IMG/VR virus record: IMGVR_UViG_3300024319_000619
Coordinates: 1 to 41,113 of that record
DNA: 41,113 nucleotides
Direction: 5' to 3' (one strand)
DNA from: a virus
The notes under the pieces are model-generated. The model was not told the DNA's origin and searched no databases. It saw only the letters and a program-made list of their open reading frames with translations. The position numbers were made by a program, and so were the translations under genes. This document shows positions 1-13,099 of this stretch, in pieces (the stretch's first letter is position 1; each line of letters starts with the position of its first letter).

Positions 1-297
1 GTTTACAGTCTATTTTAACGGAAGGTGCCTTCGTAGATGGTGATAAGACTAAGCTTGATGGGATCACAGGAACTAATACAGGAGATCAAGACCTGTCTGG
101 TTTACAGTCTATTTTAACGGAAGGTGCCTTCGTAGATGGTGATAAGACTAAGCTTGATGGGATCACAGGAACTAATACAGGAGATCAAGACCTGTCTGGT
201 TTACAGTCTATTTTAACGGAAGGTGCTTTTGTCGATGGAGACAAGACTAAGTTGGATGGAATCACTGGAACAAATACAGGAGATCAAGACCTTTCAG
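1..297 (+). repeat. Three tandem 99-bp repeats coding 33 residues each
   Basis: Copies lie at 1-99, 100-198 and 199-297. The first two are identical at every base; the third differs mainly at synonymous sites. The unit is in frame with the fibre gene. The window begins at a unit boundary, so the true number of copies cannot be known from this sequence. Confidence 0.95.
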
Positions 298-770
298 CAC
301 TAGCAACAAAAGCTAACGTGTTAGAGTTAGATAATACAGTTTCATTTACCCCTTCTGCAGACTTTCATCCAGCAACTAAGAAATATGTAGATGATAACGC
401 TGGCGGAGGCCCTTCTGGCACTACACTTTCAGGCACCACAGCAAATGCCACACCAACAGAAATCTTTGTAGATGGAACATCACCTAATAGAGTGGATGTC
501 GCTACTGGTTCAACAATTACCTTCTCTGCCTTAGTCGCAGCAAGATCTGCCACTGAAAGCGCTGGTTACAAGATCGAGGGTGTCATTAAGAATGATGCTG
601 GAACAGCCGAATTAGTTGGTGTTGTAGCTAAAACAGTTTTCGCCGAAGAAGATACGGCTTGGGACATTACAGTAACTGCGGCTAATAACGCGCTTACCTT
701 TATTGTAACTGGTGATAGTGCTGATTCGGTATCTTGGGAGGTGACTCTCAATAAGACTGAAGCAGCCTAA
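1..770 (+). CDS. Phage tail-fibre-like protein, 3' part (5' end outside the window)
   Basis: The frame is open from the left edge (first full codon at base 3), so the true start lies upstream; the internal ATG at 252 is not a credible start because it sits inside a repeat. The visible part opens with three 33-residue repeats containing GTNTGDQDLS, a motif common in tail-fibre and adhesin proteins of environmental phages. Then comes a segment with FTPSADFHPATKKYVDD, a typical fibre signature, a Gly/Thr-rich linker, and a roughly 100-residue beta-rich C-terminal domain with no Cys and many Thr, Val and Ala. It is followed three bases later by a leucine-rich-repeat gene, so it belongs to the tail-fibre operon. 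A role in host attachment is inferred from the repeats and neighbours. The family is not named with certainty. Confidence 0.7.
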   Translation, partial: LQSILTEGAFVDGDKTKLDGITGTNTGDQDLSGLQSILTEGAFVDGDKTKLDGITGTNTGDQDLSGLQSILTEGAFVDGDKTKLDGITGTNTGDQDLSALATKANVLELDNTVSFTPSADFHPATKKYVDDNAGGGPSGTTLSGTTANATPTEIFVDGTSPNRVDVATGSTITFSALVAARSATESAGYKIEGVIKNDAGTAELVGVVAKTVFAEEDTAWDITVTAANNALTFIVTGDSADSVSWEVTLNKTEAA

Positions 771-773
771 ATT

Positions 774-1484
774 ATGAACCAAGTATTCAAAGGAGACGTA
801 ACTAACAATGTAGTCGAGCTTAACTTACAAGCTGGGGCTACTAACATTGGGACTCCTACTGTTGCATATGATGGCACTAATAATGGTGAGATTGCCGTGC
901 AGGTAATGGGTGATATTACTTCTAGCAGTCGGTTTTCGGGAGATGGCACATTAAAAGGGTTAGTAATTGGCACATCATGTACGAGTATTGGTAGCTATGC
1001 TTTTTATCAATGCCAAAACCTAAATGGTTCATTGGTCATTCCAGATAGTGTTACGACTATTGGAGATCTTGCTTTTTATTATTGTTCTGGCTTTACTGGT
1101 TCGCTGACTATTCCTAATAGTGTTACTAGTATTGGGAATGTTGCTTTTAGTGTTTGCTCAGGCTTTAACGGTTCATTGACTATTCCAGATAGTGTTACAA
1201 GTATTGGGAGTAATGCTTTTTTTTATTGCACTGGCTTTACTGGCTCGTTAACCATTGGAAATAGTGTTACGACTATTGGAGATTTTGCTTTTCGTGGTTG
1301 CTCTGGCTTAACCGCTGTATACACCAACACTCCAGCTTCTAGTTTCACAGGATCAAACGCTTTAGCAGGCACCACTTTCTCTACCATATACACTGGTCCA
1401 AATGCAACTGGCTACACCTCTACATTCCAAGGAAGAACAGGCTTGACAATATCTCCTTGGACTAATTACCCTAACATCCCGTAA
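774..1484 (+). CDS. BspA-type leucine-rich-repeat protein, paralogue 1
   Basis: A 236-residue protein in three parts. The N-terminal cap of about 60 residues (MNQVFKGDVTNNVVELNL, then a short beta-rich stretch) is shared with the two later paralogues. Five LRR units of 24 to 25 residues follow (LTIPxSVTxIGxxAFxxCxG), the BspA or Treponema-type LRR_5 pattern. The C-terminal tail of about 50 residues (YTGPNATGY, FQGRTGLTI) is also shared. There is no signal peptide, unlike secreted bacterial BspA proteins, which fits a virion component. It sits between a fibre protein and a DUF4376 protein. LRR proteins of this type bind other proteins or glycans; a receptor-binding role is inferred. It has the fewest units of the three paralogues. 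No Shine-Dalgarno sequence precedes the ATG. Confidence 0.85.
   Translation: MNQVFKGDVTNNVVELNLQAGATNIGTPTVAYDGTNNGEIAVQVMGDITSSSRFSGDGTLKGLVIGTSCTSIGSYAFYQCQNLNGSLVIPDSVTTIGDLAFYYCSGFTGSLTIPNSVTSIGNVAFSVCSGFNGSLTIPDSVTSIGSNAFFYCTGFTGSLTIGNSVTTIGDFAFRGCSGLTAVYTNTPASSFTGSNALAGTTFSTIYTGPNATGYTSTFQGRTGLTISPWTNYPNIP
951..1313 (+). repeat. LRR array, 5 units of 72 bp (first 75 bp)
   Basis: Direct repeats coding GSLTIPxSVTxIGxxAFxxC units. Scaffold codons are nearly invariant, while the two codons after IG (plus or minus one) and the two between AF and C vary from unit to unit. Confidence 0.95.
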
Positions 1485-1514
1485 CTAACACAAAAATTTT
1501 AACTAAATAACAAT

Positions 1515-2081
1515 ATGAAATACGCAATCACAGGTCCAAAAGGGGCAATTTTTAACATAGTAGATGTAGAGCCAACAGACTCTCCACACTATAGTGAAAT
1601 TTCTGATGCTGATGCAGCTACAGTAGAAGCTAGTGAGGGTAGATTCTTTATCGTTGATGGTGTTCTAACGACACAAGAAGAATTCAGAGCAGCTAAACAA
1701 CAAGAAAGATATGAAGCACAAATCACTGAGTTTGGTGCTGATATTGATGGTGCAAAGGTATTCGTAAGAGATCACTTCGCCAGTAAGAGATATGATTTTG
1801 AAGTAGGTGGTATTAATGTTGGTGGTATTGACGTAAGAACTGATAGACTTACAGTTGACCGTATCTACCAAGCAAGGTTTTTAGCTAGCGAGGATAATAC
1901 ATTTACTACTGATTGGAAACTCAGTAATGGTGTGTTTTTGACAATCGATGCCGCAACTATTACTGCAATTTCTGATGGAGTTACCGCACACATTAAGGAA
2001 TCATTTCAGAGAGAAAAAGCCGCCAACGTTTCAATCGACGCTGCAACTACACTAGCAGAACTACAGGCAATTACTTGGTAA
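1515..2081 (+). CDS. DUF4376-like tail protein
   Basis: A 188-residue protein. The N-terminal half holds a short beta-rich segment and a helical stretch (EEFRAAKQQERYEAQITEFG). The C-terminal half has the DUF4376 pattern: VGGINVGGIDVRTDRLTVDRIYQA, then WKLSNGVFLTIDAATITAI and a final helix ending FQREKAANVSIDAATTLAEL. DUF4376 proteins are found in phage tail-fibre regions, often at the end of fibre genes or as fibre-assembly-like partners. The gene sits between LRR paralogues 1 and 2, separated from the first by 30 A/T-rich bases and from the second by one base. A tail or fibre-associated role follows from both family and position; the exact function is unknown. Confidence 0.7.
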   Translation: MKYAITGPKGAIFNIVDVEPTDSPHYSEISDADAATVEASEGRFFIVDGVLTTQEEFRAAKQQERYEAQITEFGADIDGAKVFVRDHFASKRYDFEVGGINVGGIDVRTDRLTVDRIYQARFLASEDNTFTTDWKLSNGVFLTIDAATITAISDGVTAHIKESFQREKAANVSIDAATTLAELQAITW

Positions 2082-2082
2082 T

Positions 2083-3240
2083 ATGAGTAAAACATACAAA
2101 GGAGATGTGACAGGTAATGTCGTCGAGCTTAATTTGCTTGATGCCAACGAAAGCACGTTGCCAAATCTTGGCACTCCTACTGTTGTTACACGTAATACTG
2201 GGCCGAATGATGTGACGCAAGTTGTTGGTGATATTACCTCTAGTAGTGGATTTTATTTTGACACTTCCGCTAAAGGGTTAGTAATTGGCACATCATGTAC
2301 AACTATTGGGAGTAATGCTTTTTATTATTGCCAAAACCTAACTGGTTCGCTGACTATTCCTAATAGTGTTACGAGTATTGGGGATAGTGCTTTTCGTAGT
2401 TGCGCTGGCTTTAACGGTTCATTGACCATTGGAAATAGTGTTACTAGTATTGGGAATGTTGCTTTTGGTCTTTGCTCAGGCTTTAACGGTTCATTGACCA
2501 TTCCAGATAGTGTTGCAAGTATTGGTAGTTCTGCTTTTCTGGGTTGCACTGGCTTAACTGGTTCATTGACCATTGGAAATAGTGTTACAACTATTGGGAA
2601 TTATGCTTTTTATGATTGCCAAGGCTTAACTGGTTCATTAACTATTGGAAACAGTGTTACAAGTATTGGGTTGTATGCTTTTGGTTTTTGCACTGGCTTT
2701 ACTGGTTCATTAACTATTGGAAACAGTGTTACGAGTATTGGGAGTTATGCTTTTTATCGATGCTCTGGCTTAACTGGTTCATTAACTATTCCAGATAGCG
2801 TTACGACTATTGGGAGTTATGCTTTTAATCAATGCTCTGACTTTGATGGTTCATTAACTATTGGAAACAGTGTTACGAGTATTGGGAGTTTTGCTTTTTA
2901 TCAATGCTCTGGCTTAACTGGTTCATTAACCATTCCGAATAGTGTTACGAGTATTGGGAGTCTTGCTTTTTATCAATGCTCTGGCTTAACTGGTTCAGCA
3001 ATCATACCAGATAGTGTTACAACTATTGGGAGTTATGCTTTTCAGAATTGCTCTAGCTTAACTGCTCTTTACACCAACACACCAGCAACATCTTGGACAG
3101 GTGCTAATGCTTTAAACAAAACCACATTCTCTACTATATATACAGGTCCAAATGCTACTGGTTATACATCATCGTTCCAAGGAAGAACTGGACTAACAAT
3201 AGTCAACTGGGACAACTATCCTAACCCAATCCCTAACTAA
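2083..3240 (+). CDS. BspA-type leucine-rich-repeat protein, paralogue 2 (longest)
   Basis: A 385-residue protein with the same plan as paralogue 1: cap (MSKTYKGDVTGNVVELNL), 11 LRR units of 24 to 25 residues, and a shared C-terminal tail ending NWDNYPNPIPN. Residues between AF and C differ from unit to unit (YY, RS, GL, LG, YD, GF, YR, NQ, YQ, QN), while the scaffold is almost constant. Units alternate between IPDS, IPNS and IGNS versions, as if assembled from a small set of cassettes. There is no signal peptide or membrane segment. The ATG lies one base after the previous stop, and the next paralogue starts two bases after this stop. A role as a receptor-binding or adhesin tip protein is inferred. 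Confidence 0.85.
   Translation: MSKTYKGDVTGNVVELNLLDANESTLPNLGTPTVVTRNTGPNDVTQVVGDITSSSGFYFDTSAKGLVIGTSCTTIGSNAFYYCQNLTGSLTIPNSVTSIGDSAFRSCAGFNGSLTIGNSVTSIGNVAFGLCSGFNGSLTIPDSVASIGSSAFLGCTGLTGSLTIGNSVTTIGNYAFYDCQGLTGSLTIGNSVTSIGLYAFGFCTGFTGSLTIGNSVTSIGSYAFYRCSGLTGSLTIPDSVTTIGSYAFNQCSDFDGSLTIGNSVTSIGSFAFYQCSGLTGSLTIPNSVTSIGSLAFYQCSGLTGSAIIPDSVTTIGSYAFQNCSSLTALYTNTPATSWTGANALNKTTFSTIYTGPNATGYTSSFQGRTGLTIVNWDNYPNPIPN
2269..3063 (+). repeat. LRR array, 11 units of 72 bp (first 75 bp)
   Basis: Eleven direct repeats in frame. Many neighbouring units share long identical stretches, such as the segments coding GSLTIGNSVTSIG, which suggests recent duplication or conversion. Confidence 0.95.
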
Positions 3241-3242
3241 CA

Positions 3243-4241
3243 ATGAGCAAAGTATTCCAAGGAACAACCACCAACAATGTCACTGAACTCACCCTGCAGA
3301 ATGAGGGCGGCAATATAGGAACGCAGACTATTGTTTGGGATGGTACCCAAGGCACTATTGATCAAGTGATCGGGGATATCCCTGATAACTGGAAGGATGG
3401 TGATGGCTCTTTAAAACAATTACAGATTGGAAGTTCGTGCACAAGTATTGGCAGTCATGCTTTTTATTATTGTAGTGGGTTTACTGGCGCATTAACTATT
3501 CCTAATAGCGTTACGAGTATTAAGTTTCAAGCTTTTGAAAATTGCTCTGGCTTAACTGGTTCGTTAACTATTCCTGATAGTGTGACATTCATTGGGTATG
3601 CTGCTTTTAAAGGTTGCTCTGGCCTTAACGGTTCATTAACCTTACCTACTAATCCTAACTTCACAAGTATTAGGAATAGTGCTTTTCGTAGTTGCACTGG
3701 CTTAACTGGTTCATTAGTTATTCCAGATAGTGTTACGACTATTGATGATTTTAGTTTTCGTAATTGTGGCTTTACTGGTTCATTAACTATTCCAGATAGT
3801 GTGATAAGTATTGGGTATGCTGCTTTTCAAGGTTGCTCAGGTTTTAATAGTTCATTAACCATTCCGAATAGTGTTACAACTATTAGCGGTCAAGCTTTTG
3901 AAAATTGCTCTGGCTTAACTGGTTCGTTAACTATTCCTGATAGTGTGACATTCATTGGGTATGCTGCTTTTCAAGGTTGCTCAGGTTTTAATAGTTCATT
4001 AACCATTCCGAATAGTGTTACAACTATTGGGACTTATGCTTTTCAGAATTGCTCTAGCTTAACTGCTCTTTACACCAACACACCAGCAACATCTTGGACA
4101 GGTGCTAATGCTTTAAACAACACCACCTTCACTACCATATACACAGGTCCAAATGCTACTGGTTACACATCATCGTTCCAAGGAAGAACTGGCTTAACAA
4201 TATCTCCTTGGACTAATTACCCTAACCCAATTCCAAATTAA
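3243..4241 (+). CDS. BspA-type leucine-rich-repeat protein, paralogue 3
   Basis: A 332-residue protein with a more diverged cap (MSKVFQGTTTNNVTELTL), nine LRR units and a tail nearly identical to that of paralogue 2. Two units have irregular lengths: 26 residues with LPTNPNFTSI, and 23 residues with the Ser before GFT missing. Exact internal copies are present: 81 bp at 3528-3608 recurs at 3891-3971, and 75 bp at 3810-3884 recurs at 3954-4028. Array remodelling by recombination is therefore recent. It is the last gene of the fibre cluster; a run of seven T follows the stop at 4250-4256, without a clear hairpin. The receptor-binding role is inferred. Confidence 0.85.
   Translation: MSKVFQGTTTNNVTELTLQNEGGNIGTQTIVWDGTQGTIDQVIGDIPDNWKDGDGSLKQLQIGSSCTSIGSHAFYYCSGFTGALTIPNSVTSIKFQAFENCSGLTGSLTIPDSVTFIGYAAFKGCSGLNGSLTLPTNPNFTSIRNSAFRSCTGLTGSLVIPDSVTTIDDFSFRNCGFTGSLTIPDSVISIGYAAFQGCSGFNSSLTIPNSVTTISGQAFENCSGLTGSLTIPDSVTFIGYAAFQGCSGFNSSLTIPNSVTTIGTYAFQNCSSLTALYTNTPATSWTGANALNNTTFTTIYTGPNATGYTSSFQGRTGLTISPWTNYPNPIPN
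3411..4064 (+). repeat. LRR array, 9 units, with exact internal duplications
   Basis: The units are mostly 72 bp. Two pairs of perfect copies are 363 bp apart (five units plus 3 bp, passing through the 78-bp and 69-bp units) and 144 bp apart (two units). Confidence 0.95.
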
Positions 4242-4244
4242 GTA

Positions 4245-4274
4245 TTGTCTTTTTTTAATTAGTATATATATACT
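4245..4274 (+). promoter_or_regulatory. Promoter P1 before sulfotransferase 1
   Basis: A -35-like TTGTCT at 4245-4250, an 18-base gap and a -10-like TATACT at 4269-4274. Only five bases separate the -10 box from the ATG at 4280, so the transcript should start at or next to the start codon. Confidence 0.5.
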
Positions 4275-4277
4275 AAT
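4258..4277. promoter_or_regulatory. Perfect 20-bp AT-rich palindrome over the P1 -10 box
   Basis: ATTAGTATAT followed by ATATACTAAT: all ten base pairs match with no spacer. It covers the -10 box of P1, which is where a repressor operator could act; it could also form a cruciform. No regulator gene next to it suggests which. Confidence 0.5.
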
Positions 4278-4279
4278 AT

Positions 4280-5077
4280 ATGAAAACAGTTCATTTCACA
4301 TCTGGTCTTCCTAGAGCTTGCTCTACTCTTCTACAAAACTTACTAGCCCAAAACCCAAAGGTTCATGCTACTGCTACATCTGGCATCCATGAGATCGGTT
4401 ACATTGCAAGAGACTTCTTTGAAACAGAGGAATTTAAAACATTTAAGAACCCACTAGATGGTGAAAGACAATATCACAACTTTCTTAGAGGTGGTATTAA
4501 AAGCGCATTTGATGGCGACACTGATAGACCAGTTGTTGTAGACAAGTGCAGATCATGGATTGGGCATCTTGATCAATTGTTTCAAGTGTTTCCAGATGCT
4601 AAAGTATTAGTACCAGTGAGAGATGTTCGCGGCATCCTATCTAGTTTTGAGAAGATGAGAATCAAACACCCATCAAGGTTTGTTGGGGTGGAGAAACAAA
4701 ACCCCCAAAGCTGGACAACTGTTGAGAAGAGATCACAGGGATGGCTACAAATGCCGCCGCTTGGCATCGCCGTAGAAAGGCTTCATGACGCGATTAAGCG
4801 CCACAAAGACAAGCTTCACTTTGTTCACGCAGAAGATCTAACAACAGACCCTGTAGAAACAATGAACGCAGTCTGGGACTATCTAGAGATGGATAGGTTC
4901 GAGATTAATCCCCTCAATGTAGAACAGTATACAGATGAGCATGAGCTAGGTTGGCCATATGGCGAGCATAAGATCCGCAATGTTGTTAAGCCATTGAAGC
5001 CAGATTGGCATGAAGTTTTGGGGAGAGAGTTCTCAGAGCAGATTAAACAGTCGTTTGATTGGATAAATGATCTTTAA
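4280..5077 (+). CDS. Sulfotransferase 1 (PAPS-dependent family)
   Basis: A 265-residue protein of the sulfotransferase fold. The 5'-phosphosulfate-binding loop is GLPRACSTLL at residues 9-18, just after the first beta strand. The 3'-phosphate-binding segment is VLVPVRDVRGILSSFEK, with Arg114 and Ser121/122 in the expected places. The family moves a sulfo group from PAPS to sugars, proteins or small molecules. The substrate cannot be read from the sequence; host surface glycans or virion proteins are candidates, given the place right after the LRR fibre genes. The loop has Ala-Cys where its paralogue at 5298 has the more usual Ser-Gly. No signal peptide is seen, so it should act in the cytoplasm. 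It has its own promoter-like site, P1. Confidence 0.82.
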   Translation: MKTVHFTSGLPRACSTLLQNLLAQNPKVHATATSGIHEIGYIARDFFETEEFKTFKNPLDGERQYHNFLRGGIKSAFDGDTDRPVVVDKCRSWIGHLDQLFQVFPDAKVLVPVRDVRGILSSFEKMRIKHPSRFVGVEKQNPQSWTTVEKRSQGWLQMPPLGIAVERLHDAIKRHKDKLHFVHAEDLTTDPVETMNAVWDYLEMDRFEINPLNVEQYTDEHELGWPYGEHKIRNVVKPLKPDWHEVLGREFSEQIKQSFDWINDL

Positions 5078-5169
5078 AAAACATTATTCAGCGGATATTG
5101 AGCGTTTTAGTTATAAATTTGATGAACGATGATATGACAATGTTATATAATATTGTGTAATATACATAT

Positions 5170-5257
5170 ATGAGCTGTGGCACTAACAGAAAACCAAATC
5201 AAAGCCTTATATAATGATGGCAACGCTTTAGATTATAGCGAAACAACTTGGAGATAA
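5170..5257 (+). pseudogene. Relic of the C-terminal end of a LamG/concanavalin-like domain
   Basis: From 5177 to 5257 one frame reads VALTENQIKALYNDGNALDYSETTWR and stop. LT..QI.ALYN.GN.L.Y is the usual end of a LamG-like lectin domain in fibre and surface proteins. A TGA lies in the same frame at 5171-5173 and nothing upstream continues the domain, so only about 26 codons remain. Another frame has an ATG at 5170 that ends after 14 codons. This looks like what is left of a deleted or replaced fibre gene. Confidence 0.55.
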
Positions 5258-5262
5258 AATCC

Positions 5263-5291
5263 TCGACCCTGAACCCTAAAACCTTTATCCT
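5263..5291 (+). promoter_or_regulatory. Promoter P2 before sulfotransferase 2 and the lysis genes
   Basis: A -35-like TCGACC at 5263-5268, a 17-base gap, and a -10-like TATCCT at 5286-5291 lying six bases before the ATG at 5298. The surrounding sequence resembles P4 at 13064 (GATAA, TCCTC, GACCCTGA, CCT in the same order), which supports it as a true element. Confidence 0.5.
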
Positions 5292-5297
5292 GAGCCC

Positions 5298-6104
5298 ATG
5301 TCAAAGGATATACACTTCGTCTGCGGCCTACCAAGGAGCGGCTCGACCCTGCTCTGCAACCTTCTAGCACAGCACCCCGACGTCCACACTACCCCCACCA
5401 GCGCGTGCCATGAGTCTTTGTTCGTGTTACGAAATAACTGGAACCAGTGGCTGGAGCACAAAGCCTCTAAGGATTTAGCGGATGACAAGAACTTGCAGCG
5501 TGTGATGCACGCCATGATCCATGCTTACCATGATACTGATAAGCCCGTGGTTATAGATAAAGGCCGTGGCTGGACTAGTTTGCTCGAGATGGCAGAGTTT
5601 GCATTAGGTAGAAAAGCTAAGGTTTTAGTTCCAGTCCGCAACATTAGCCAGATTGTTTCCAGTATGGAGAAGCTGCACCGTAAAGCAGCACACAAGAAAC
5701 AGGATAGTGGTGACTATTTTGCGGCACAAACTGTAGATGGGAGGGCTAATCAAGTCCTAGCCAAAGACGGCGTGCTTGGTTTAGCTTACAACCGCCTTAA
5801 AGATGCGGCTCAGCGCGGACTCGCTGATCGATTATTGCTGGTCGAGTTTGATGCACTTACCTCTAAGCCTACCGAAACCATGGCAGAAGTATGGGATTTC
5901 CTCGGGATGGAGGCACCAGAACACAACTTCAACAACGTAGAGCAGACCACAACGGAGGACGACAGCGTCCACGGTCTTGACTTGCACACAATCCGACCTA
6001 TAATAGAACCTGTCCCAGACGACAGCGAAGAAGTTCTAGGCACCACCTTGTGTAAGACATTAGAAGGCGCTGAATTTTGGAGACCTGCTTCACCCCCAGC
6101 CTGA
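5298..6104 (+). CDS. Sulfotransferase 2 (PAPS-dependent family)
   Basis: A 268-residue paralogue of the protein at 4280. The phosphosulfate loop GLPRSGSTLL at residues 10-19 matches the family consensus, and the 3'-phosphate segment VLVPVRNISQIVSSMEK has Arg114 and Ser121/122 at the same positions as the paralogue. The central and C-terminal parts align with sulfotransferase 1 (FLGMEAPEHNFNNVEQ against YLEMDRFEINPLNVEQ). Its codon use looks richer in G and C than that of its paralogue, so the two may have been acquired separately rather than by recent duplication. It heads a compact run of genes leading into the lysis cassette. The substrate is unknown. The start is fixed by promoter P2 ending six bases upstream. 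Confidence 0.85.
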   Translation: MSKDIHFVCGLPRSGSTLLCNLLAQHPDVHTTPTSACHESLFVLRNNWNQWLEHKASKDLADDKNLQRVMHAMIHAYHDTDKPVVIDKGRGWTSLLEMAEFALGRKAKVLVPVRNISQIVSSMEKLHRKAAHKKQDSGDYFAAQTVDGRANQVLAKDGVLGLAYNRLKDAAQRGLADRLLLVEFDALTSKPTETMAEVWDFLGMEAPEHNFNNVEQTTTEDDSVHGLDLHTIRPIIEPVPDDSEEVLGTTLCKTLEGAEFWRPASPPA

Positions 6105-6106
6105 AC

Positions 6107-6523
6107 ATGACACCCCCAAATCCAGACCTGCACACATACTACGACGGCGAACTAGGAGAGCGAGTGTTCTATTCTTGTGAGCCTATTGCTTACGACAGTG
6201 GACAAGAGCCTTTAATTGTAGTCCCACCCAAATTTATTAGCAATGGTCTGTCAATCCCACGTGCTGCACAGCCTTTAATCAATACCCCAAAAGCCCCAGA
6301 GTGGGTGGGCGCAGGGATCTTACATGATTGGCTTTATGCCAAAGTGGAACGACATGAAAACATATCCCGTAGAAAATGCGACCGCATCTTCTTGCTGTTC
6401 ATGAAACTGTATGGCGTAGGGATCATTAAGCGTAGAATCATTTACTGGGCAGTCAGAGCAGCTGGCCGCCTTGCATTCCGAAAGAAAACCCCAAAATTCG
6501 CAACCCATAACCACCATGATTAA
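6107..6523 (+). CDS. DUF1353 family protein
   Basis: A 138-residue protein. The pattern PPKFISNGLSIPRA, WVGAGILHDWLY, RRKCDRIFLLFMK and a final helix WAVRAAGRLAF is that of DUF1353. This small protein family is common in phage lysis and tail-end regions and has no proven biochemical role. The ATG at 6107 is preferred over one at 6077 because it lies two bases after the previous stop and removes a 30-base overlap. The end overlaps the next gene by eight bases. A link with lysis is inferred from the neighbours only. Confidence 0.75.
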   Translation: MTPPNPDLHTYYDGELGERVFYSCEPIAYDSGQEPLIVVPPKFISNGLSIPRAAQPLINTPKAPEWVGAGILHDWLYAKVERHENISRRKCDRIFLLFMKLYGVGIIKRRIIYWAVRAAGRLAFRKKTPKFATHNHHD

Positions 6524-6677
6524 ATACATATTAGTAGCATTAGCAACCCTAGCACTCGCAGCATGTGAGGGCCTTAGCGTCAACCTTGACAACGACAAGT
6601 TCAAAGGCTCTTATTCCGCCAAAGGTGGGTTAGTTATTTCTCCTCAAGCAATTCGTATTATCGAGCCAGCTAAATGA
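6516..6677 (+). CDS. Small lipoprotein, candidate outer-membrane spanin
   Basis: A 53-residue protein. Residues 1-17 form a lipoprotein signal peptide (MIKYILVALATLALAAC) with lipobox LAAC, so Cys17 would be lipidated. About 36 residues remain (EGLSVNLDNDKFKGSYSAKGG...), with no membrane segment and few prolines. It overlaps the DUF1353 gene by eight bases and the amidase gene by four. The size and place within a lysis cassette suggest an outer-membrane spanin (Rz1-like), but Rz1 proteins are usually Pro-rich and no inner-membrane partner is evident, so a superinfection-exclusion or other small lipoprotein is equally possible. The ATG at 6516 is chosen over 6471 because it begins the signal peptide directly. 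Confidence 0.65.
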   Translation: MIKYILVALATLALAACEGLSVNLDNDKFKGSYSAKGGLVISPQAIRIIEPAK

Positions 6678-7306
6678 AGCGCATCTGCCTCGACGCAGGT
6701 CACGGCGGAAATGACGTAGGTGCCCTAGGGCCATCGGGTTTGGAAGAATCCGAGATGGCCCTCGACGTGTGTGAACGCGCTAAGTTCATTCTATCTCCTT
6801 ACGTAGAGGTAGTGATGACTCGCAGCAATGACACCTCCGTCAGCCTCACTGAGAGAGCTGATATCTGTAATGCTGCGGATTGTGATATCTTTATCTCATA
6901 TCATTTTAATGCAGCTACCAGCATGGTCGCAAACGGTTGGGAGATCTTTACTACTAAGAAAGACAACAACTCAGATAAGCTGGCGACCTGCATCGGAGAG
7001 GCTCACGCTGCCCTGTTCCCGACTCAGAATGCTCGCCAAGACTGGTCAGATGGCGATCTTGACAAAGAAGCAGATTTTTCTGTGATACGCAGAGCCAACT
7101 GCCCCGCCGTGTTGATGGAAGGGGAGTTTATACATACCGCTCTGGGTGAGGCACTTATAAATGATCCTAGCAATCGAGAGAAGATGGCGCGGGCTATAGC
7201 CGACGGATCATTGAAATACCTTGGTTTGCAGCCCATCACAAGCAAACCCGCATTGACATTAGAGGAACGGATTGCTAGAATCGAAAAAACCTTAGGGATA
7301 TCATGA
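6674..7306 (+). CDS. N-acetylmuramoyl-L-alanine amidase (endolysin, Amidase_3 type)
   Basis: A 210-residue zinc amidase that cuts the bond between N-acetylmuramic acid and L-alanine in peptidoglycan. Visible motifs: LDAGHGG with His10, GLEES with Glu24/25, ISYHFNA with His77, and VLMEGEF with the probable catalytic Glu149. The fold covers about residues 1-180; the last 20 residues (LTLEERIARIEKTLGIS) look like a short coiled coil that may pair with the similar segment of the next protein. There is no signal peptide, so release should depend on a holin. Start and stop each overlap a neighbour by four bases (ATGA), showing tight coupling in the lysis cassette. Confidence 0.9.
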   Translation: MKRICLDAGHGGNDVGALGPSGLEESEMALDVCERAKFILSPYVEVVMTRSNDTSVSLTERADICNAADCDIFISYHFNAATSMVANGWEIFTTKKDNNSDKLATCIGEAHAALFPTQNARQDWSDGDLDKEADFSVIRRANCPAVLMEGEFIHTALGEALINDPSNREKMARAIADGSLKYLGLQPITSKPALTLEERIARIEKTLGIS

Positions 7307-7539
7307 GCGTGGAAGACAAACTCGAATCAATAATGTCGGAGCTACGCTCCATAAGAAAGACCACGGAGAAGCTAGAAGAGCGGATCAATGGTAATGGGAG
7401 GGCTGGAGTATTCGAGCGCATAGTGTCCGTTGAGACTAGGATCAGTGAGGCAGAGAAGAACAAATCAGCTTCGGTCGCACTGGGAACAGCAATCATGTCA
7501 GCCCTTGGTGTGATTGCCTCGTTGTTTTTTGGTAAATGA
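7303..7539 (+). CDS. Holin-like protein: coiled coil plus C-terminal membrane segment
   Basis: A 78-residue protein. Residues 1-55 are a charged coiled coil (LESIMSELRSIRKTTEKLEERI, then FERIVSVETRISEAEKNK); residues 57-76 form one hydrophobic membrane segment (VALGTAIMSALGVIASLFF). This plan resembles XhlA/hemolysin-type phage membrane proteins. It overlaps the amidase gene by four bases. A role as holin or holin partner is inferred from topology and place, with no family match claimed. Confidence 0.7.
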   Translation: MSVEDKLESIMSELRSIRKTTEKLEERINGNGRAGVFERIVSVETRISEAEKNKSASVALGTAIMSALGVIASLFFGK

Positions 7540-7563
7540 TCCCTCGTGTGCTGTGTTTTGAAG

Positions 7564-7592
7564 TTGGCTTTTTGCCGTGAGTGATGTAAACT
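7564..7592 (+). promoter_or_regulatory. Promoter P3 before the 1308-residue repeat protein
   Basis: TTGGCT at 7564-7569, a 17-base gap, and TAAACT at 7587-7592; six bases then lead to the ATG at 7599. The 59-base gap between genes holds nothing else. Confidence 0.45.
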
Positions 7593-7598
7593 GCGCGT

Positions 7599-10500
7599 AT
7601 GCCTCTGAGTAGCCAACGTCAGCGTTTCTCTATATTTGTCAGTCCACGGAACGAGGACTTTTTATTCTACGAAAAAGTAGACAAGCAGCGTGTACAGGAG
7701 TCTATCCCAGAATATGGCGACCCTCACCCTGATTTTAGGAAATACCCTAATCATTTCTTTACTCAAGCTGTTCAGGCCGACGAAGAGGGGCAGGTTTATT
7801 TTTATTACTATGCCGCAAAGCGTGAGCACCAAGACGACTACAACTTTGAACACACTACCGTTAACCATAAGTCTGGCACATATGATCAAGTAATAAGGAC
7901 CTACATCACTCTACGGTCAGAATACGACGAGGATGCCCCAGCACTGGGATCCCCGATGCCTATTGTAGATGCTGACCCCTTTGATGCATCTGATAAGTAT
8001 ACCCTAATTTCTAGGGAGCAATCTCGTGTCGGTGAAACAGTAGGTATCTCATCGAAGAGAAACCCAGACGAGATGGACTCCATGTTTGTGCTGGAGAAAT
8101 GTGTGTATCTCAAGAGGGCACCCATTACCACGACCTCATATGACAAAAACACAGGGGCTCATGTCTTTACTACGACAAACCTAGTTCACCGAGATGAGAT
8201 AATATCGACCAAAGGCGCAGACGCACAAGAACTTTTTTACCTTCGTCCCGACAACGTCTCACAGTATTATCAGCCTGACGGTGTATCCCGATACGCCGTC
8301 TATGGCGCGACCTCAGGGGTTACAGGGTTTACTGTTGTCGAGCTATTAGACGATAGTGACAACCCTTTCTGGGAGGTAGACGAGGAGACAGGAGCGCACC
8401 AAACGGTTGAACAGGTTTCCGAAGAGTGGTTCTATGTGTCAGCTATCCAGAATGGCGAGGTCAATGAGCGCCGCGTGTTCGTATACCTGACTCCAGACCA
8501 GAATGATTTTGTGTTCTATGAGCTGGTTGACCGTAAAAATGAGAAGCTAGAACCAGCCCCACTACCAGAATTTGGGGAAGCACACTCCGAGTTTACAGAC
8601 CACAAGTTCGTCGCCGCTGTCCCTAATGATAATATTGGAGACTTCTACAAGTTTTACTACGCTCGTGATCGGTTCAACGAAGACCAGTATAATTTCTCTG
8701 AGTCCTTCGTAGACATTGGCGGAGTCCGCGTATCCTTAGTCCGTCGCAGCTACGTCGTGCTCCGTGACTCCTATGACCCTGATGCACCTGTCGTTGGTGC
8801 GCCAATGTCACCTGAACCAAACAACAAGTTTACAGGCAACTACCTGCTCGTGGATCGTGTTCAACGACCCATCGAAGATGAGACCTTGTCCTCGCTGTAT
8901 GTATCGGAAGAGCGTATTTATGCTAAGACTCCAGACGTAGGGAATCAGGAAGGAAACTTCACGCTTCAGGAAGGAGGGTTGACGGTCACGCGCACATGGA
9001 TCGTGCCAAGGGATCAGGTTGGAGCATTCCCTAGACCAGCAGTCGGAGCATCAGACTCTAAGTATGGACAATATGAATACGCTACACGACGTATATCTCA
9101 GGAGACACCACCTGAGATAGACAGCTATTTCAGTGTAGTCTTGGACATTTATGCCAAGAAAGGTTGGGCCTTTCAAGAAGACCACCAGTATAACATCGGG
9201 TATAAGATTATCGAAACCTCCACCCTAGAGGATGAAAAGTACGGAGAGGGTAATTACACAGTATCATTTGATGAGCGTGGGTGGCAGAGGAAGCAGCGTA
9301 GTGCCGAGCTCACTGGATTTGAATACGAATCACAAGTCGAGACCAGACCATATGGTAAGATAACGACCAACACATCCGCGGGAACCGAGCCCATTGTAGG
9401 GCAGAACAACACCCGTAGTCGTATTGTGTTTGATGATGGCACCTTACAAATTTATCAACGCGACGAAGACACCTTCACCATTAAAGAAGGCTCCGCAGGT
9501 CAGGAGAAGAATGAGCAGATCTACGCATCAATAACCACCAATAAGTTTTACAGATCAACGGGGGATGTGCTGACTGACACGGGGTCTAGTCGGGTTATCT
9601 ATGATGACGGGACTACACAAGTGTATGAAGTTAGCGAGGAGTCTGTAGTAGCCAAAGAAGGTGACGCAGGTCAAACTATACAGAAGACCGCGTCGGCAAT
9701 TATCACCACTAGCAGTATTTTCTCCCAGAATGGTGATGTCACAGGGGACACTGGTAGCTCTCGGGTCGTTTACCGCGGCGGCGGAGTAACTATTTATCAA
9801 ATAGATAACGAGGTCGCTGAGTTACCTGCCGACACAGACGCTGGTGAGACCAAACAGCAGACTGTCTTCGCCGATATATCTACTGCAAGTGAGTTCAGAC
9901 TTTCTCCTACGATCAACACAGACACTGGTAGCTCACGTGTAGCTTACCGCGGTGGTGGTGTTGTGATCTACCAAGTAGATGAAGAGACGACAACGATCAC
10001 TACTAATACTGACGCTGGTGAGACAATACAAAAAACAGCTGCTGCCAAGATCACCACAACTAGCACATATGCCCAGTCTGGTGATGTCACTGGTGACACG
10101 GGTAGCTCTCGAGTAGTTTACCGAGGTGGTGGTGTTATCCTTTACCAGATTGATAATGAGGTCGCTCAGTTACCCACTAACACAGACGCTGGACAGACTA
10201 AACAGCAGACTATATTCGCCGACATCACTACAACAAGCACATATGCAACCTCTGGCAATATCTCATCCGCTACAGGAAGTTCACGTGTGGCTTACCGCGG
10301 AGGTGGGATTGTTATCTACCAAGTTGACAATGAGACTACAACAGTAGCCTCTAATAAAGATGCTGGTCAGACTAAAGAAGCCCGTTTATATGGCACGCTG
10401 ACGACAACTAGTACATATAGCCAGAGCTCTAGCGTCACTGGAAACATTGGTAGATCAAGGGTAGTGTATCGGGGTGGTGGGACAATCATTTACCAAGTCG

Positions 10501-11525
10501 ATGTAGAAGATCTTGTATTCAAAGCAGCGGAGAATGGGGAGACCAAAGAGTCTACTATATATGCCACGATTACCACTACGTCTAAGTTTGCCACTAGCGG
10601 AGCATTAACCAGCACGGGTAATTCTAGGTTGGTGTATAATGATGGCACCACCGAAGTATACCAAGTTGATGAAGTTACAGAGATAGACCCTAACGAGACT
10701 TATACCTACACCGTTATATCATCCGTTGATTGGGGACATCTGGAAGTTAAAACTTACTTTAATCAGACAGGTGTCGCTGAAGATCCAAATAAGATAAACC
10801 GCATCAGAGCAGTTTATAGGGGTGAGGTTACGGGAGCTTCGATTCAGGTGTTCCAAATTGACGAAGAAACCCCTGTTCCAGACACCGCAGAGTTCACGTC
10901 ATCTAAGGAGACTAACCCATATTTCACTCGTGAAACATTCACTAAATATGATAAGACCCCCAACTCAACTCCAGCGCCTACTGAGGAAGTAAGAAATACA
11001 GCGGTGTATAATAATGCGACCGATGTCATATACAGAATTGACAGGACGGTATTTACTCCAGAGCCCGCAGTTACGTATGAGAGCACCGTCAACAAAAAAT
11101 GGCCAGCCGTGCTAGGGGGACTAACGCCCCAAAAATGGTCCCAGAGAGATGGCACCGACGTTTTCTCATATTTCCCGACATACATACAGGAAGAATATAG
11201 TGGGCCCTGCCGCGCTAGCGTGACTGAGACATGGTCTAAAGAAGCCCCAACAGGACAATCATCGGTAGGACCCTTCCTGAAGACGACCCCTGTTTTCTTT
11301 TCGTGCCCTTTGTTTAGGGTAAGTATCCCACCATGTTTACACACCGCACAGACGTTTTCAGGTACTACTGGTACTACAAGTGACCAGTGGGAATACCTAG
11401 TGTGGAATGAGACAATACCAGCCACCGAGCAAACTAATTGGGTTAATGTTGTAATCTCAGACGAGGTGTCCCCCTTCCAAGGAGGTTTCCTCCAGAAAAC
11501 AATAACGTGTTACCCACCAGTTTAA
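7599..11525 (+). CDS. Large repeat-rich structural protein (probable tail component)
   Basis: A 1308-residue protein in three parts. An N-terminal domain of about 165 residues occurs twice (about residues 10-175 and 290-450), each copy with (D/N)(D/E)FxFYE.VD, a central Y.FYYA.(D/R)R and DxDAPxxGxPM. Eight repeats of 57 to 59 residues follow, about residues 588-1030 (TTTSTY...TGSSRVVYRGGGxxIYQxDxE...DAGxTK). A C-terminal region of about 270 residues contains four cysteines within about residues 1208-1248. The repeats are short beta-rich units without hydrophobic segments. No enzyme motif was recognised. It stands first in a transcription unit with two other unknown proteins and no signal peptide, which fits a fibre, spike or baseplate-like protein; this is inference. 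A long antisense frame at 10844-11425 is a shadow. Confidence 0.75.
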   Translation: MPLSSQRQRFSIFVSPRNEDFLFYEKVDKQRVQESIPEYGDPHPDFRKYPNHFFTQAVQADEEGQVYFYYYAAKREHQDDYNFEHTTVNHKSGTYDQVIRTYITLRSEYDEDAPALGSPMPIVDADPFDASDKYTLISREQSRVGETVGISSKRNPDEMDSMFVLEKCVYLKRAPITTTSYDKNTGAHVFTTTNLVHRDEIISTKGADAQELFYLRPDNVSQYYQPDGVSRYAVYGATSGVTGFTVVELLDDSDNPFWEVDEETGAHQTVEQVSEEWFYVSAIQNGEVNERRVFVYLTPDQNDFVFYELVDRKNEKLEPAPLPEFGEAHSEFTDHKFVAAVPNDNIGDFYKFYYARDRFNEDQYNFSESFVDIGGVRVSLVRRSYVVLRDSYDPDAPVVGAPMSPEPNNKFTGNYLLVDRVQRPIEDETLSSLYVSEERIYAKTPDVGNQEGNFTLQEGGLTVTRTWIVPRDQVGAFPRPAVGASDSKYGQYEYATRRISQETPPEIDSYFSVVLDIYAKKGWAFQEDHQYNIGYKIIETSTLEDEKYGEGNYTVSFDERGWQRKQRSAELTGFEYESQVETRPYGKITTNTSAGTEPIVGQNNTRSRIVFDDGTLQIYQRDEDTFTIKEGSAGQEKNEQIYASITTNKFYRSTGDVLTDTGSSRVIYDDGTTQVYEVSEESVVAKEGDAGQTIQKTASAIITTSSIFSQNGDVTGDTGSSRVVYRGGGVTIYQIDNEVAELPADTDAGETKQQTVFADISTASEFRLSPTINTDTGSSRVAYRGGGVVIYQVDEETTTITTNTDAGETIQKTAAAKITTTSTYAQSGDVTGDTGSSRVVYRGGGVILYQIDNEVAQLPTNTDAGQTKQQTIFADITTTSTYATSGNISSATGSSRVAYRGGGIVIYQVDNETTTVASNKDAGQTKEARLYGTLTTTSTYSQSSSVTGNIGRSRVVYRGGGTIIYQVDVEDLVFKAAENGETKESTIYATITTTSKFATSGALTSTGNSRLVYNDGTTEVYQVDEVTEIDPNETYTYTVISSVDWGHLEVKTYFNQTGVAEDPNKINRIRAVYRGEVTGASIQVFQIDEETPVPDTAEFTSSKETNPYFTRETFTKYDKTPNSTPAPTEEVRNTAVYNNATDVIYRIDRTVFTPEPAVTYESTVNKKWPAVLGGLTPQKWSQRDGTDVFSYFPTYIQEEYSGPCRASVTETWSKEAPTGQSSVGPFLKTTPVFFSCPLFRVSIPPCLHTAQTFSGTTGTTSDQWEYLVWNETIPATEQTNWVNVVISDEVSPFQGGFLQKTITCYPPV
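9360..10690 (+). repeat. Eight protein repeats of about 58 residues with a two-unit higher order
   Basis: Units 3 and 5 resemble each other most (GDVTGDTGSSRVVYRGGG, then YQIDNEVA.LP), as do units 4 and 6 (TGSSRVAYRGGG, then ETTT). The array therefore grew at least once by copying a pair of units. The first two and last units are the most diverged. Confidence 0.85.
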
Positions 11526-11529
11526 TACA

Positions 11530-12144
11530 ATGCCCTATCCTGATTACAGCGGAGGACCCACGAATTACTACCAAACGGACCCACTAGTTGACTTCCCACC
11601 ATCAAGGTTTAGTGGTGGTAGTGGTGATGTACACCCATGGAAAATAACCATTATCAATGACCCAGATTTTCCTGAGACAGGAAGACCGAAGTGGGTGCTA
11701 TCAACTACAGGGACATTGATTTATGACCCTTCACATCTCTCCCTTGTCACCGAGGATGGAGTCACGAACGAAGGAGTGACAAAAGGAAAATATGTAAATA
11801 TTGAGTTAGCCGCTCTGGGAATAGACATTACAGGAGAGTCAGTGATATATTTTCAGTATGGGATTGAGGATAAAAATGTAACATTTGAAGTGGCATCAAG
11901 AGACGATGGGGAGACGGAGGTATGGAAAAGGTATCTGCCTGAAGATGCTTTTGCTGACCCAAATAATATAAAAGACCTCACCCACTCTAAGACCCCAATT
12001 GCTCTAATACGGAACAACCCAGACTTACCAGACGATCCGACACCCGCAGACCGATACATAGTCACGCAGTTGGTAAGGAGCAACATGGTCATTAATGATT
12101 CCTGCTTCAGGGGTGTTGCATTGCCAGCCTTTATCCCCCTTTAA
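11530..12144 (+). CDS. Hypothetical structural-region protein
   Basis: A 204-residue protein that I do not recognise. It starts with a Pro/Tyr/Gly-rich stretch (MPYPDYSGGPTNYYQTDPLVDFPP) and continues as a beta-rich, mostly acidic protein without membrane segments, signal peptide or repeats. The last 60 residues include RNNPDLPDDPTPADRYIV. It starts four bases after the stop of the repeat protein and ends three bases before the next gene, so it is almost certainly cotranscribed with both. A virion or fibre-accessory role is likely from context alone. Confidence 0.65.
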   Translation: MPYPDYSGGPTNYYQTDPLVDFPPSRFSGGSGDVHPWKITIINDPDFPETGRPKWVLSTTGTLIYDPSHLSLVTEDGVTNEGVTKGKYVNIELAALGIDITGESVIYFQYGIEDKNVTFEVASRDDGETEVWKRYLPEDAFADPNNIKDLTHSKTPIALIRNNPDLPDDPTPADRYIVTQLVRSNMVINDSCFRGVALPAFIPL

Positions 12145-12147
12145 GAT

Positions 12148-13050
12148 ATGGATGACGCTGTCCCAGAAATAACTGACCCGACCGAATCATTCTTACAGCA
12201 GAATTTACCCTTCTGCATTGAGAATATGGATGTCTCTAATTACGCATATGTTGAACCCATGACGCTAGAGCAAGCCTCTGCTTTGGTTTTTAACTTGGCT
12301 TCCGTTGAAATTACAGACGACATACTTAAACTCCAAGTTGTTGTAATTCCCGCAGTGGCCGTGTATCCTGATGGAAGCGAAGCGGAAGAAACAACTTATG
12401 AGCTCATCTTTACGGATGTCGCGTATCCTGATGGGGAAGAAGGATGGGGTGTGGAGCCCTTTAAGTTATCTACCATTCACTCTGAAGAACGTGGCGACGA
12501 TTACTTCCAATATTTGAGGTATTCAGAGGAGGAGGTTGAGCCTCGACAGAGAGCAGCTTGTGGCCCAGCTGAATCCTCAAGAGAAATACACTCATTTACA
12601 TTTCCAGGTGATGTATTTGCTTCAGTAAATTTTGGACCGTTTGTTAAGATGTATGATGGGGACGTTGACGACGAAGCAAACCATATTGGTTACGGATTCC
12701 CCATCGGAGCCCTCCAGATGCATAGTGGTGTTGAAGGTGTTGATGCTAATGGGGTTGCATATGGCAACTTCGCAGAAGACGGAGATTGGGAAAGTGACGG
12801 TGGATTATTTCCTTATCCGAACTGGTGGGCTGAGTTCGGACCGTTCTACGGCAACAGGCGCGAAAGACAAGCGCAACCTGATAACGTAACCACCGTGTCC
12901 ATAGACGGGTTTCCATTTGTTGCAGCCTACTGGCAGGGCAGGGATGCCGATTTTTTTGCAGGCGAACGAACACAAACCACATGGACTGCTACTGGCTTAC
13001 CACCCTCTGGTTCCTTTAACTTTTATACCTACGAGTCACAACAACCTTGA
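12148..13050 (+). CDS. Hypothetical structural-region protein, acidic
   Basis: A 300-residue acidic protein rich in Asp, Glu, Tyr, Trp and Phe, not recognised. Residues 1-20 are very acidic. The middle repeats a short VYPDGSEAEE / AYPDGEEG pattern. The C-terminal third is Gly and aromatic-rich (WWAEFGPFYGN, FVAAYWQGRDADFF, GSFNFYTYESQQP), as in many fibre or spike tips. No signal peptide or membrane segment is seen. It ends the unit begun by the 1308-residue protein. A role in the tail is inferred only from the neighbours and composition. Confidence 0.65.
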   Translation: MDDAVPEITDPTESFLQQNLPFCIENMDVSNYAYVEPMTLEQASALVFNLASVEITDDILKLQVVVIPAVAVYPDGSEAEETTYELIFTDVAYPDGEEGWGVEPFKLSTIHSEERGDDYFQYLRYSEEEVEPRQRAACGPAESSREIHSFTFPGDVFASVNFGPFVKMYDGDVDDEANHIGYGFPIGALQMHSGVEGVDANGVAYGNFAEDGDWESDGGLFPYPNWWAEFGPFYGNRRERQAQPDNVTTVSIDGFPFVAAYWQGRDADFFAGERTQTTWTATGLPPSGSFNFYTYESQQP

Positions 13051-13063
13051 TAATCCTCAGCCC

Positions 13064-13092
13064 TTGACCCTGATTCCTTAATCTGCTACCAT
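13064..13092 (+). promoter_or_regulatory. Promoter P4 before the neck-type protein
   Basis: TTGACC at 13064-13069 (five of six consensus bases), a 17-base gap, and TACCAT at 13087-13092; seven bases then lead to the ATG at 13100. The flanking sequence resembles P2. Confidence 0.6.
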
Positions 13093-13099
13093 TAAAATT

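What the first reader, a model, noticed from the sequence alone, without database searches (positions are those of the whole stretch)
774..4241. Cassette-type LRR arrays that look like a recombination-driven receptor-binding diversity system
Three tandem paralogues share a constant N-terminal cap and C-terminal tail, with 5, 11 and 9 BspA-type LRR units between them. The units keep scaffold codons and vary at a few set positions (two codons after IG, two between AF and C). Exact copies within paralogue 3 (81 bp at 3528 and 3891; 75 bp at 3810 and 3954) show recent duplication or conversion. Constant ends plus shuffled LRR units recall the logic of lamprey variable lymphocyte receptors, here in a phage fibre cluster without a signal peptide and without a reverse transcriptase in the window.
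Basis: partly seen in the sequence, partly recalled or inferred. Interest (0 to 1): 0.68.

Follow-up and report, generated by a model that had tools for sequence, protein, structure and literature searches.

The report
Swappable LRR receptor module in phages
Unrelated, probably marine, phages share and swap a 4.7-kilobase gene module whose leucine-rich-repeat proteins, probably the parts that grip the host cell, keep fixed front ends while their repeat arrays are reshuffled by recombination and changed mostly at a few probably exposed positions.

Summary
ORFs 774-1484, 2083-3240 and 3243-4241 are BspA-type (Pfam LRR_5) proteins with 5, 11 and 9 24-residue units; the quoted exact repeats exist. 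DNA homology to eight other IMG/VR records with otherwise unrelated sampled flanks is confined to window ~400-5080: a module of fibre C-terminal domain, LRR1, DUF4376 protein, LRR2, LRR3 (sometimes LRR4) and a sulfotransferase. A sister phage 99.6% identical over 5303-13464 carries LamG-lectin genes instead. Inside the module, N-caps define stable gene classes (26/26), while unit number, unit order and C-terminal tails turn over. In one pair the order is non-collinear (1,2,3,4,10,..,7,8); in another, 95-99% identical N-caps are followed by 65-82% identical arrays. Variable codons are saturated for non-synonymous change (pN/pS about 3; about 1 in bacterial BspA arrays). No reverse transcriptase was found in 41 records, and a sibling's arrays are identical, so ordinary recombination plus selection explains it, not a DGR or proven programmed shuffling. 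The VLR analogy is partial: variable residues lie outside the beta-strand that VLRs vary, and tails are exchanged. Receptor binding is inferred, not shown.

The parts
1..404 (+). Backbone-specific fibre shaft (5' truncated by the record end), with 99-bp tandem repeats
   Evidence: No homology in the eight module-bearing relatives; 97.4% identical to the LamG-bearing sister phage G020 over 12-403; tandem repeats
405..770 (+). Fibre C-terminal domain; left edge of the module, fused at a Gly-rich linker
   Evidence: 76-98% aa identical in eight otherwise unrelated phages (seven at 95-98%), fused there to different shafts
774..1484 (+). LRR paralogue 1 (class 1 N-cap), 5 units
   Evidence: Pfam LRR_5 1.5e-33
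981..1340 (+). Unit array of paralogue 1
   Evidence: same unit number in G002, changed codons concentrated in columns 5,6,9,10
1515..2081 (+). DUF4376 protein, tail-fibre associated (phrog_10508)
   Evidence: Pfam DUF4376 9.4e-13; PHROG tail fiber 3.1e-21; 78-96% aa identical in relatives
2083..3240 (+). LRR paralogue 2 (class 2 N-cap), 11 units
   Evidence: Pfam LRR_5 2.7e-72; AlphaFold2 model pLDDT 91.4, pTM 0.86
2299..3090 (+). Unit array of paralogue 2
   Evidence: only 4 units in G002
3243..4241 (+). LRR paralogue 3 (class 3 N-cap), 9 units including irregular ones
   Evidence: Pfam LRR_5 1.4e-49
3441..4091 (+). Unit array of paralogue 3, rearranged relative to G002
   Evidence: unit-by-unit identity table
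3527..3608 (+). Exact 82-bp repeat, second copy at 3890
3810..3884 (+). Exact 75-bp repeat, second copy at 3954
3033..3119 (+). Exact 87-bp repeat shared with paralogue 3 (4034-4120): last unit and start of tail
4280..5077 (+). Module sulfotransferase (SulfoT1); right edge of the module
   Evidence: Pfam Sulfotransfer_3 1.2e-16; the 15 contigs found with it all carry LRR matches
5298..6104 (+). Backbone sulfotransferase (SulfoT2), first gene outside the module
   Evidence: retained in sister phage G020; only ~36-37% aa identity (no nt match) to anything in the relatives

Best explanation
Window ~400-5080 is an exchangeable host-recognition (distal tail-fibre / adhesin) module shared by otherwise different tailed phages. 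It is joined to a backbone-specific fibre shaft at a Gly-rich linker through a conserved fibre C-terminal domain. It carries a DUF4376 fibre-associated protein, three or four BspA-type LRR adhesins with class-specific N-terminal docking segments, and a linked sulfotransferase. The LRR proteins diversify by ordinary homologous recombination: unequal exchange and short-tract conversion between the near-identical scaffold DNA of units, paralogues and co-infecting phages. This changes unit number, order and tails, while selection keeps the probably exposed codons of columns 5, 6, 9, 10 diverse. Shown: module boundaries, module replacement, array rearrangement, tail exchange, codon pattern. Inferred: virion location, receptor binding, selection on binding, recombination pathway.
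For: nt homology with eight relatives confined to ~400-5080, nothing in fibre shaft or the flanks examined; conserved fibre domain fused to different shafts; sister phage with LamG lectins in place of 404-5302; LamG-LRR hybrid in G005; N-cap class kept 26/26 vs tail class 13/26 (permutation mean 8.2, p = 0.076); P3 units non-collinear with G002, matched units at 82-100% identity; P2/P3 87-bp exact shared end; G015/G017: N-caps 95-99%, rest of genes 65-82%, flanks 91-96%; arrays more divergent than fibre domain, DUF4376 and sulfotransferase in most relatives; pN/pS 2.9 at variable vs 0.39 at scaffold columns, about 1 in bacterial BspA genes; in collinear P1, 8/20 variable vs 11/100 other codons changed vs G002, p = 0.004, five by multi-nucleotide replacement; confident BspA-LRR fold.
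Against: No virion proteomics, binding data or host; the role is by analogy and position. pN is saturated in all BspA arrays, so pN/pS is a crude index, and the scaffold columns were partly fixed by the search pattern. The non-collinear P3 comparison rests on single short-read contigs, although two other array sets are reproduced in independent records. Some flank contigs are short, so 'unrelated backbone' means the stretches examined. The tail-exchange test alone is only marginally below class concordance (p = 0.076 means tails keep at most weak class signal).
Confidence: 0.75

Rival explanations
1. The LRR proteins are not virion parts but are made in the infected cell (superinfection exclusion or surface remodelling together with the sulfotransferase).
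For: All 15 contigs found by SulfoT1 also carry LRR genes; the LRR genes are separate ORFs, not fused to the fibre; no binding data.
Against: No obvious signal peptide (N-termini read by eye, no predictor run); the module is fused in frame to the fibre gene and holds a tail-fibre PHROG protein; replaced by LamG lectin genes in a sister phage.
Confidence: 0.15
2. A diversity-generating retroelement varies the units by targeted mutagenesis.
For: Variable codons are mostly NNT (T in 95% of NNY over all units, 100% in P2 and P3) with saturated first and second bases.
Against: No RVT_1 match in 41 records with working controls; non-NNT codons CAA, GAA, CTG, TTG, CGA, AAA at the same sites; sibling arrays identical; third-base freezing is seen in several scaffold codons too, as homogenisation predicts; the same columns vary equally in bacterial BspA genes.
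Confidence: 0.02
3. Neutral repeat birth and death in a tolerant solenoid, no selection for new specificity.
For: Tandem 72-bp units recombine readily; the same columns vary in all BspA arrays; pN saturates.
Against: pS at variable codons is 0.18-0.21 with pN 0.56-0.59 in P2/P3, against median pS 0.66 in bacterial arrays; changes concentrate in variable codons between window and G002 P1; whole-module replacement points to host recognition.
Confidence: 0.12
4. Programmed, VLR-like within-lineage shuffling by a dedicated phage system.
For: Fixed N-cap, cassette-like units, array turnover.
Against: Arrays identical in L005 and nearly so in the pairs G015/G016 and G017/G019 (1 and 0 differences); no dedicated enzyme or donor-unit store recognised.
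Confidence: 0.05

Closest known systems
Horizontally exchanged tail-fibre / receptor-binding modules of phages (domain shuffling, PMC10684548; P2, Mu and T-even fibres from own knowledge)
   Same: Host-recognition genes swapped between unrelated backbones, crossover in a linker, backbone-specific N-terminal part kept
   Different: Here the exchanged parts are BspA-type LRR solenoids that are themselves reshuffled internally, with a linked sulfotransferase
BspA-type (LRR_5 / TpLRR) surface proteins (PDB 4fs7, 4gt6, 6mlx)
   Same: Sequence family and fold
   Different: No obvious signal peptide; N-cap of phage-specific sequence; phage fibre context; synonymous sites far more homogeneous than in the bacterial genes examined
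Lamprey variable lymphocyte receptors (PMC3900441)
   Same: 24-residue LRR units, fixed N-terminal cap, variable unit number and order by gene-conversion-like recombination
   Different: Evolution of phage genomes, not somatic; C-terminal tail exchanged; variable residues outside the concave strand (inferred); no donor array found, deaminase not searched
Diversity-generating retroelements (BPP-1 Mtd, own knowledge)
   Same: Diversified host-binding protein, third codon base constant at variable codons
   Different: No reverse transcriptase found; purine-ending codons at the variable sites; arrays identical in sibling
FNIP / FGxxFN LRR families of giant viruses (PMC9525666)
   Same: Multi-copy viral LRR proteins with caps; most variable residues at the edge of, not on, the concave strand
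   Different: Different repeat class, eukaryotic hosts

Membership tests
BspA-type LRR (Pfam LRR_5) | Match above the curated cut-off | tested here: met
   115.8, 241.1, 167.7 bits vs 27.7
BspA-type LRR (Pfam LRR_5) | BspA-type solenoid fold | tested here: met
   AlphaFold2 pLDDT 91.4; Foldseek best PDB hits 4fs7 E 1.4e-9, 4gt6 E 4.4e-9
Phage receptor-binding / tail-fibre module | Associated with fibre genes | tested here: met
   Fused to fibre gene, phrog_10508 tail fiber protein within
Phage receptor-binding / tail-fibre module | Exchanged as a unit between otherwise different or near-identical phages | tested here: met
Phage receptor-binding / tail-fibre module | Protein present in virion and binds host receptor | not testable with these tools
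   needs proteomics and adsorption assays
VLR-like assembly system | Fixed caps at both ends with variable LRR units between | tested here: not met
   N-cap class kept 26/26, but C-tail class only 13/26 against a permutation mean of 8.2
VLR-like assembly system | Variable residues on the concave beta-strand face | tested here: inconclusive
   Variable columns 5,6,9,10 lie outside the model's strands (cols 18-20, 1-2); coordinates not available
VLR-like assembly system | Donor LRR store and deaminase-driven conversion within an individual | tested here: inconclusive
   Arrays identical in L005 sibling; no donor store recognised; deaminase not searched
Diversity-generating retroelement | Reverse transcriptase in the genome | tested here: not met
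   0 of 41 related records match RVT_1; controls positive; none among the window ORFs scanned. Records are fragments
Diversity-generating retroelement | Template repeat with adenine-specific variation | not tested
   no RT, so no TR search; purine-ending codons occur at variable sites

The most novel reading that the evidence does not exclude
Phage populations carry a dedicated, VLR-like cassette system: LRR units are actively recombined within and between the three to four paralogues so that sibling virions display different binding proteins, possibly tuned further by the module's own sulfotransferase acting on the Tyr-rich variable columns.
Probability: 0.06. Interest if true: 0.88.

Novelty: new variant of a known kind. 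Interest (0 to 1): 0.6.

Why it matters
It shows host-recognition diversification in uncultured, probably marine, phages at three nested levels in one locus: whole module swapped across backbones, tails swapped between genes, LRR units reshuffled inside genes. It makes two things directly testable: whether phages use LRR solenoids as modular binding proteins whose specificity follows unit composition, and how fast such arrays turn over in nature. The conserved join (fibre shaft / Gly linker / C-terminal domain) also gives a sequence handle for finding further modules.

Tried and rejected
DGR: considered because variable codons are mostly NNT; rejected (no RT in 41 records, purine-ending codons at the same sites, frozen third bases at several scaffold codons, identical sibling arrays). 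Assembly artefact: unlikely for the window (identical arrays in record L005) and for G015/G016, G017/G019; not excluded for G002. Cellular origin: genome-contig scan gave only distant BspA proteins of Bacteroidales and Clostridia (26-60% identity); no host named. Cultured relative: TerL and the fibre C-terminal domain have no match in 50,697 phage records. Structure of the fibre C-terminal domain: low confidence (pLDDT 54), not used. Tyrosine sulfation of LRR units by SulfoT1: idea only; Tyr-rich columns are generic in BspA proteins and no close solved sulfotransferase was found. Fisher counts were mis-tallied; corrected. An early unit motif had one residue too many; corrected. Literature searches found no paper describing such LRR modules in phages, within an open-licence library only.
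Full report
OBSERVATION. The three ORFs at 774-1484, 2083-3240 and 3243-4241 contain 5, 11 and 9 LRR units of about 24 residues and match Pfam LRR_5 at E = 1.5e-33, 2.7e-72 and 1.4e-49. The quoted exact repeats exist (82 and 75 bp); the longest is an 87-bp copy between the ends of paralogues 2 and 3. Units keep I, A/S, F, C, L scaffold positions; columns 5, 6, 9, 10 carry most variation. The window is an entire IMG/VR record of 41,113 bases with DNA polymerase A, primase, helicase, exonuclease, RuvC, terminase and endolysin genes. Its terminase has no relative among 50,697 phage records.

THE MODULE. Eight other IMG/VR records (G002, G003, G004, G006, G007, G008, G009, G011) share DNA with the window only between about 400 and 5080; the stretches beyond, where held, do not match. 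The same eight lack the fibre shaft at 1-404 and have only a 36-37% identical stretch, or nothing, for the sulfotransferase at 5298. The left edge lies in the fibre gene: a 121-residue C-terminal domain, 95-98% identical in seven of the eight, is joined at a Gly-rich or Ala-Gly linker to unrelated shafts. The right edge is the end of the sulfotransferase at 4280-5077. The 15 contigs found with that sulfotransferase all carry LRR matches, three of them only partial genes at contig edges. Of 19 LRR-bearing records only the near-identical sibling has the window's terminase, and of 50 records with that terminase only two have any LRR match, a distant one.

MODULE REPLACEMENT. G020 is 99.6% identical to the window over 5303-13464 and 97.4% over fibre 12-403, but in place of 404-5302 has a different fibre end, a 191-residue protein and two ORFs of tandem Laminin_G_3 domains. 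G023, also 99.6% identical downstream, begins inside the same LamG gene. G021 has an LRR_5 gene beside a LamG gene; G005 has one protein with both domains. Exchange of one adhesin fold for another at a fibre tip is the usual mark of host-recognition genes (established knowledge of P2, Mu and T-even tail fibres; PMC10684548).

ARRAY TURNOVER. By N-cap, all 26 LRR genes have their nearest neighbour in the same class; by C-terminal tail only 13 do (permutation mean 8.2, p = 0.076). Units of class 1 genes number 4 to 12. Against G002, paralogue 3 units run 1, 2, 3, 4 (96-100% identical), then 10 (96%), then a partial match to 11, then 7 (97%), then 8 (82%), and the tail differs. Paralogue 1 is collinear: 8 of 20 variable codons but 11 of 100 others changed (p = 0.004), five of 19 changed codons by multi-nucleotide replacement, which suggests short conversion tracts. 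A second pair, G015 and G017, has N-caps 95.5, 95.5 and 99.1% identical, the rest of the genes 65-82%, and flanks 91-96%. The unit-neighbour test shows more same-gene neighbours than expected (11.0 vs 4.8, 4/300 permutations) and more same-class neighbours (40 vs 25, 0/300), but no excess between paralogues of one phage: local duplication and exchange between orthologues dominate, with occasional inter-paralogue conversion such as the P2/P3 end.

CODON PATTERN. In the window, pN/pS is 2.9 at columns 5, 6, 9, 10 and 0.39 elsewhere. pN at these columns is about 0.6 in every BspA array tested, bacterial ones included; what differs is pS, 0.18-0.21 in paralogues 2 and 3, median 0.66 in ten bacterial genes. 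Many synonymous positions are homogenised while amino acids at variable columns stay diverse. Nearly all pyrimidine-ending variable codons end in T; this looks like DGR output, but no reverse transcriptase is present in 41 records, purine-ending codons occur at the same sites and the arrays of the near-identical record L005 are unchanged (17 differences in 9237 bases, none in the LRR genes).

STRUCTURE. The AlphaFold2 model of paralogue 2 is confident (pLDDT 91.4, pTM 0.86) except the first 30 and last few residues. The first ~25 residues are the best conserved part of each N-cap class and poorly ordered in the monomer model, which fits a docking segment (inference). Foldseek finds BspA-type proteins 4fs7 and 4gt6. 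Strands cover columns 18-20 and 1-2; the variable columns fall outside them. By the usual LRR layout that puts them on the return or convex side, unlike VLRs, whose variable residues are on the concave sheet (PMC3900441).

MECHANISM. Most likely: unequal homologous recombination and short conversion tracts among repeated scaffold DNA, in mixed infections and within genomes, followed by selection on binding. Shown: boundaries, swap, rearrangement, tail exchange, codon pattern. Inferred: virion position, receptor binding, enzymology. It is not demonstrated that shuffling is programmed or fast: three pairs of records have identical or almost identical arrays.

VERDICT. The locus is a host-recognition module of a known general kind built on BspA-type LRR proteins that are themselves reshuffled: a new variant. 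That the phages are marine is inferred from the recurring IMG/VR sample families and related uncultured records, not from any metadata seen here.

Noticed in passing
window 1-292: 99-bp tandem repeat (2.9 copies, 94% matches) in the fibre shaft, also present in sister phage G020 (L149 5645-6036).
   Followed up: partly
window 27632-41041: A 4469-residue ORF; the first 1456 residues have no PHROG match.
   Followed up: partly
window 7599-11525: A 1308-residue ORF without Pfam or significant PHROG match, with internal ~300-bp repeats (~75% identity) seen in the comparison with G020.
   Followed up: partly
window 4280-5077: Sulfotransferase tightly linked to the LRR genes over unrelated backbones; the LamG version of the locus in G020 lacks it. 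Substrate unknown.
   Followed up: partly
L157 3290-6439; G008 contig 54440-58915; G015 contig 40954-45867: Much larger LRR proteins (reading frames of 1050 to over 2000 aa) elsewhere in some module-bearing genomes.
   Followed up: no
L305 (89.7-kb IMG/VR record) 1-7300: Four LRR genes with the same low synonymous, high non-synonymous pattern (pN/pS 1.6-4.7), so the behaviour is not unique to this module.
   Followed up: no
L005 vs window 1757-1784, 7823-7865, 8612-8630: The 17 differences between the two near-identical records fall in three short clusters, suggesting recombination tracts or strain mixing in assembly.
   Followed up: no
L150 3993-4832: Sulfotransferase ending in a poly-Gln run, overlapped by an ORF beginning with poly-Thr (microsatellite).
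   Followed up: no
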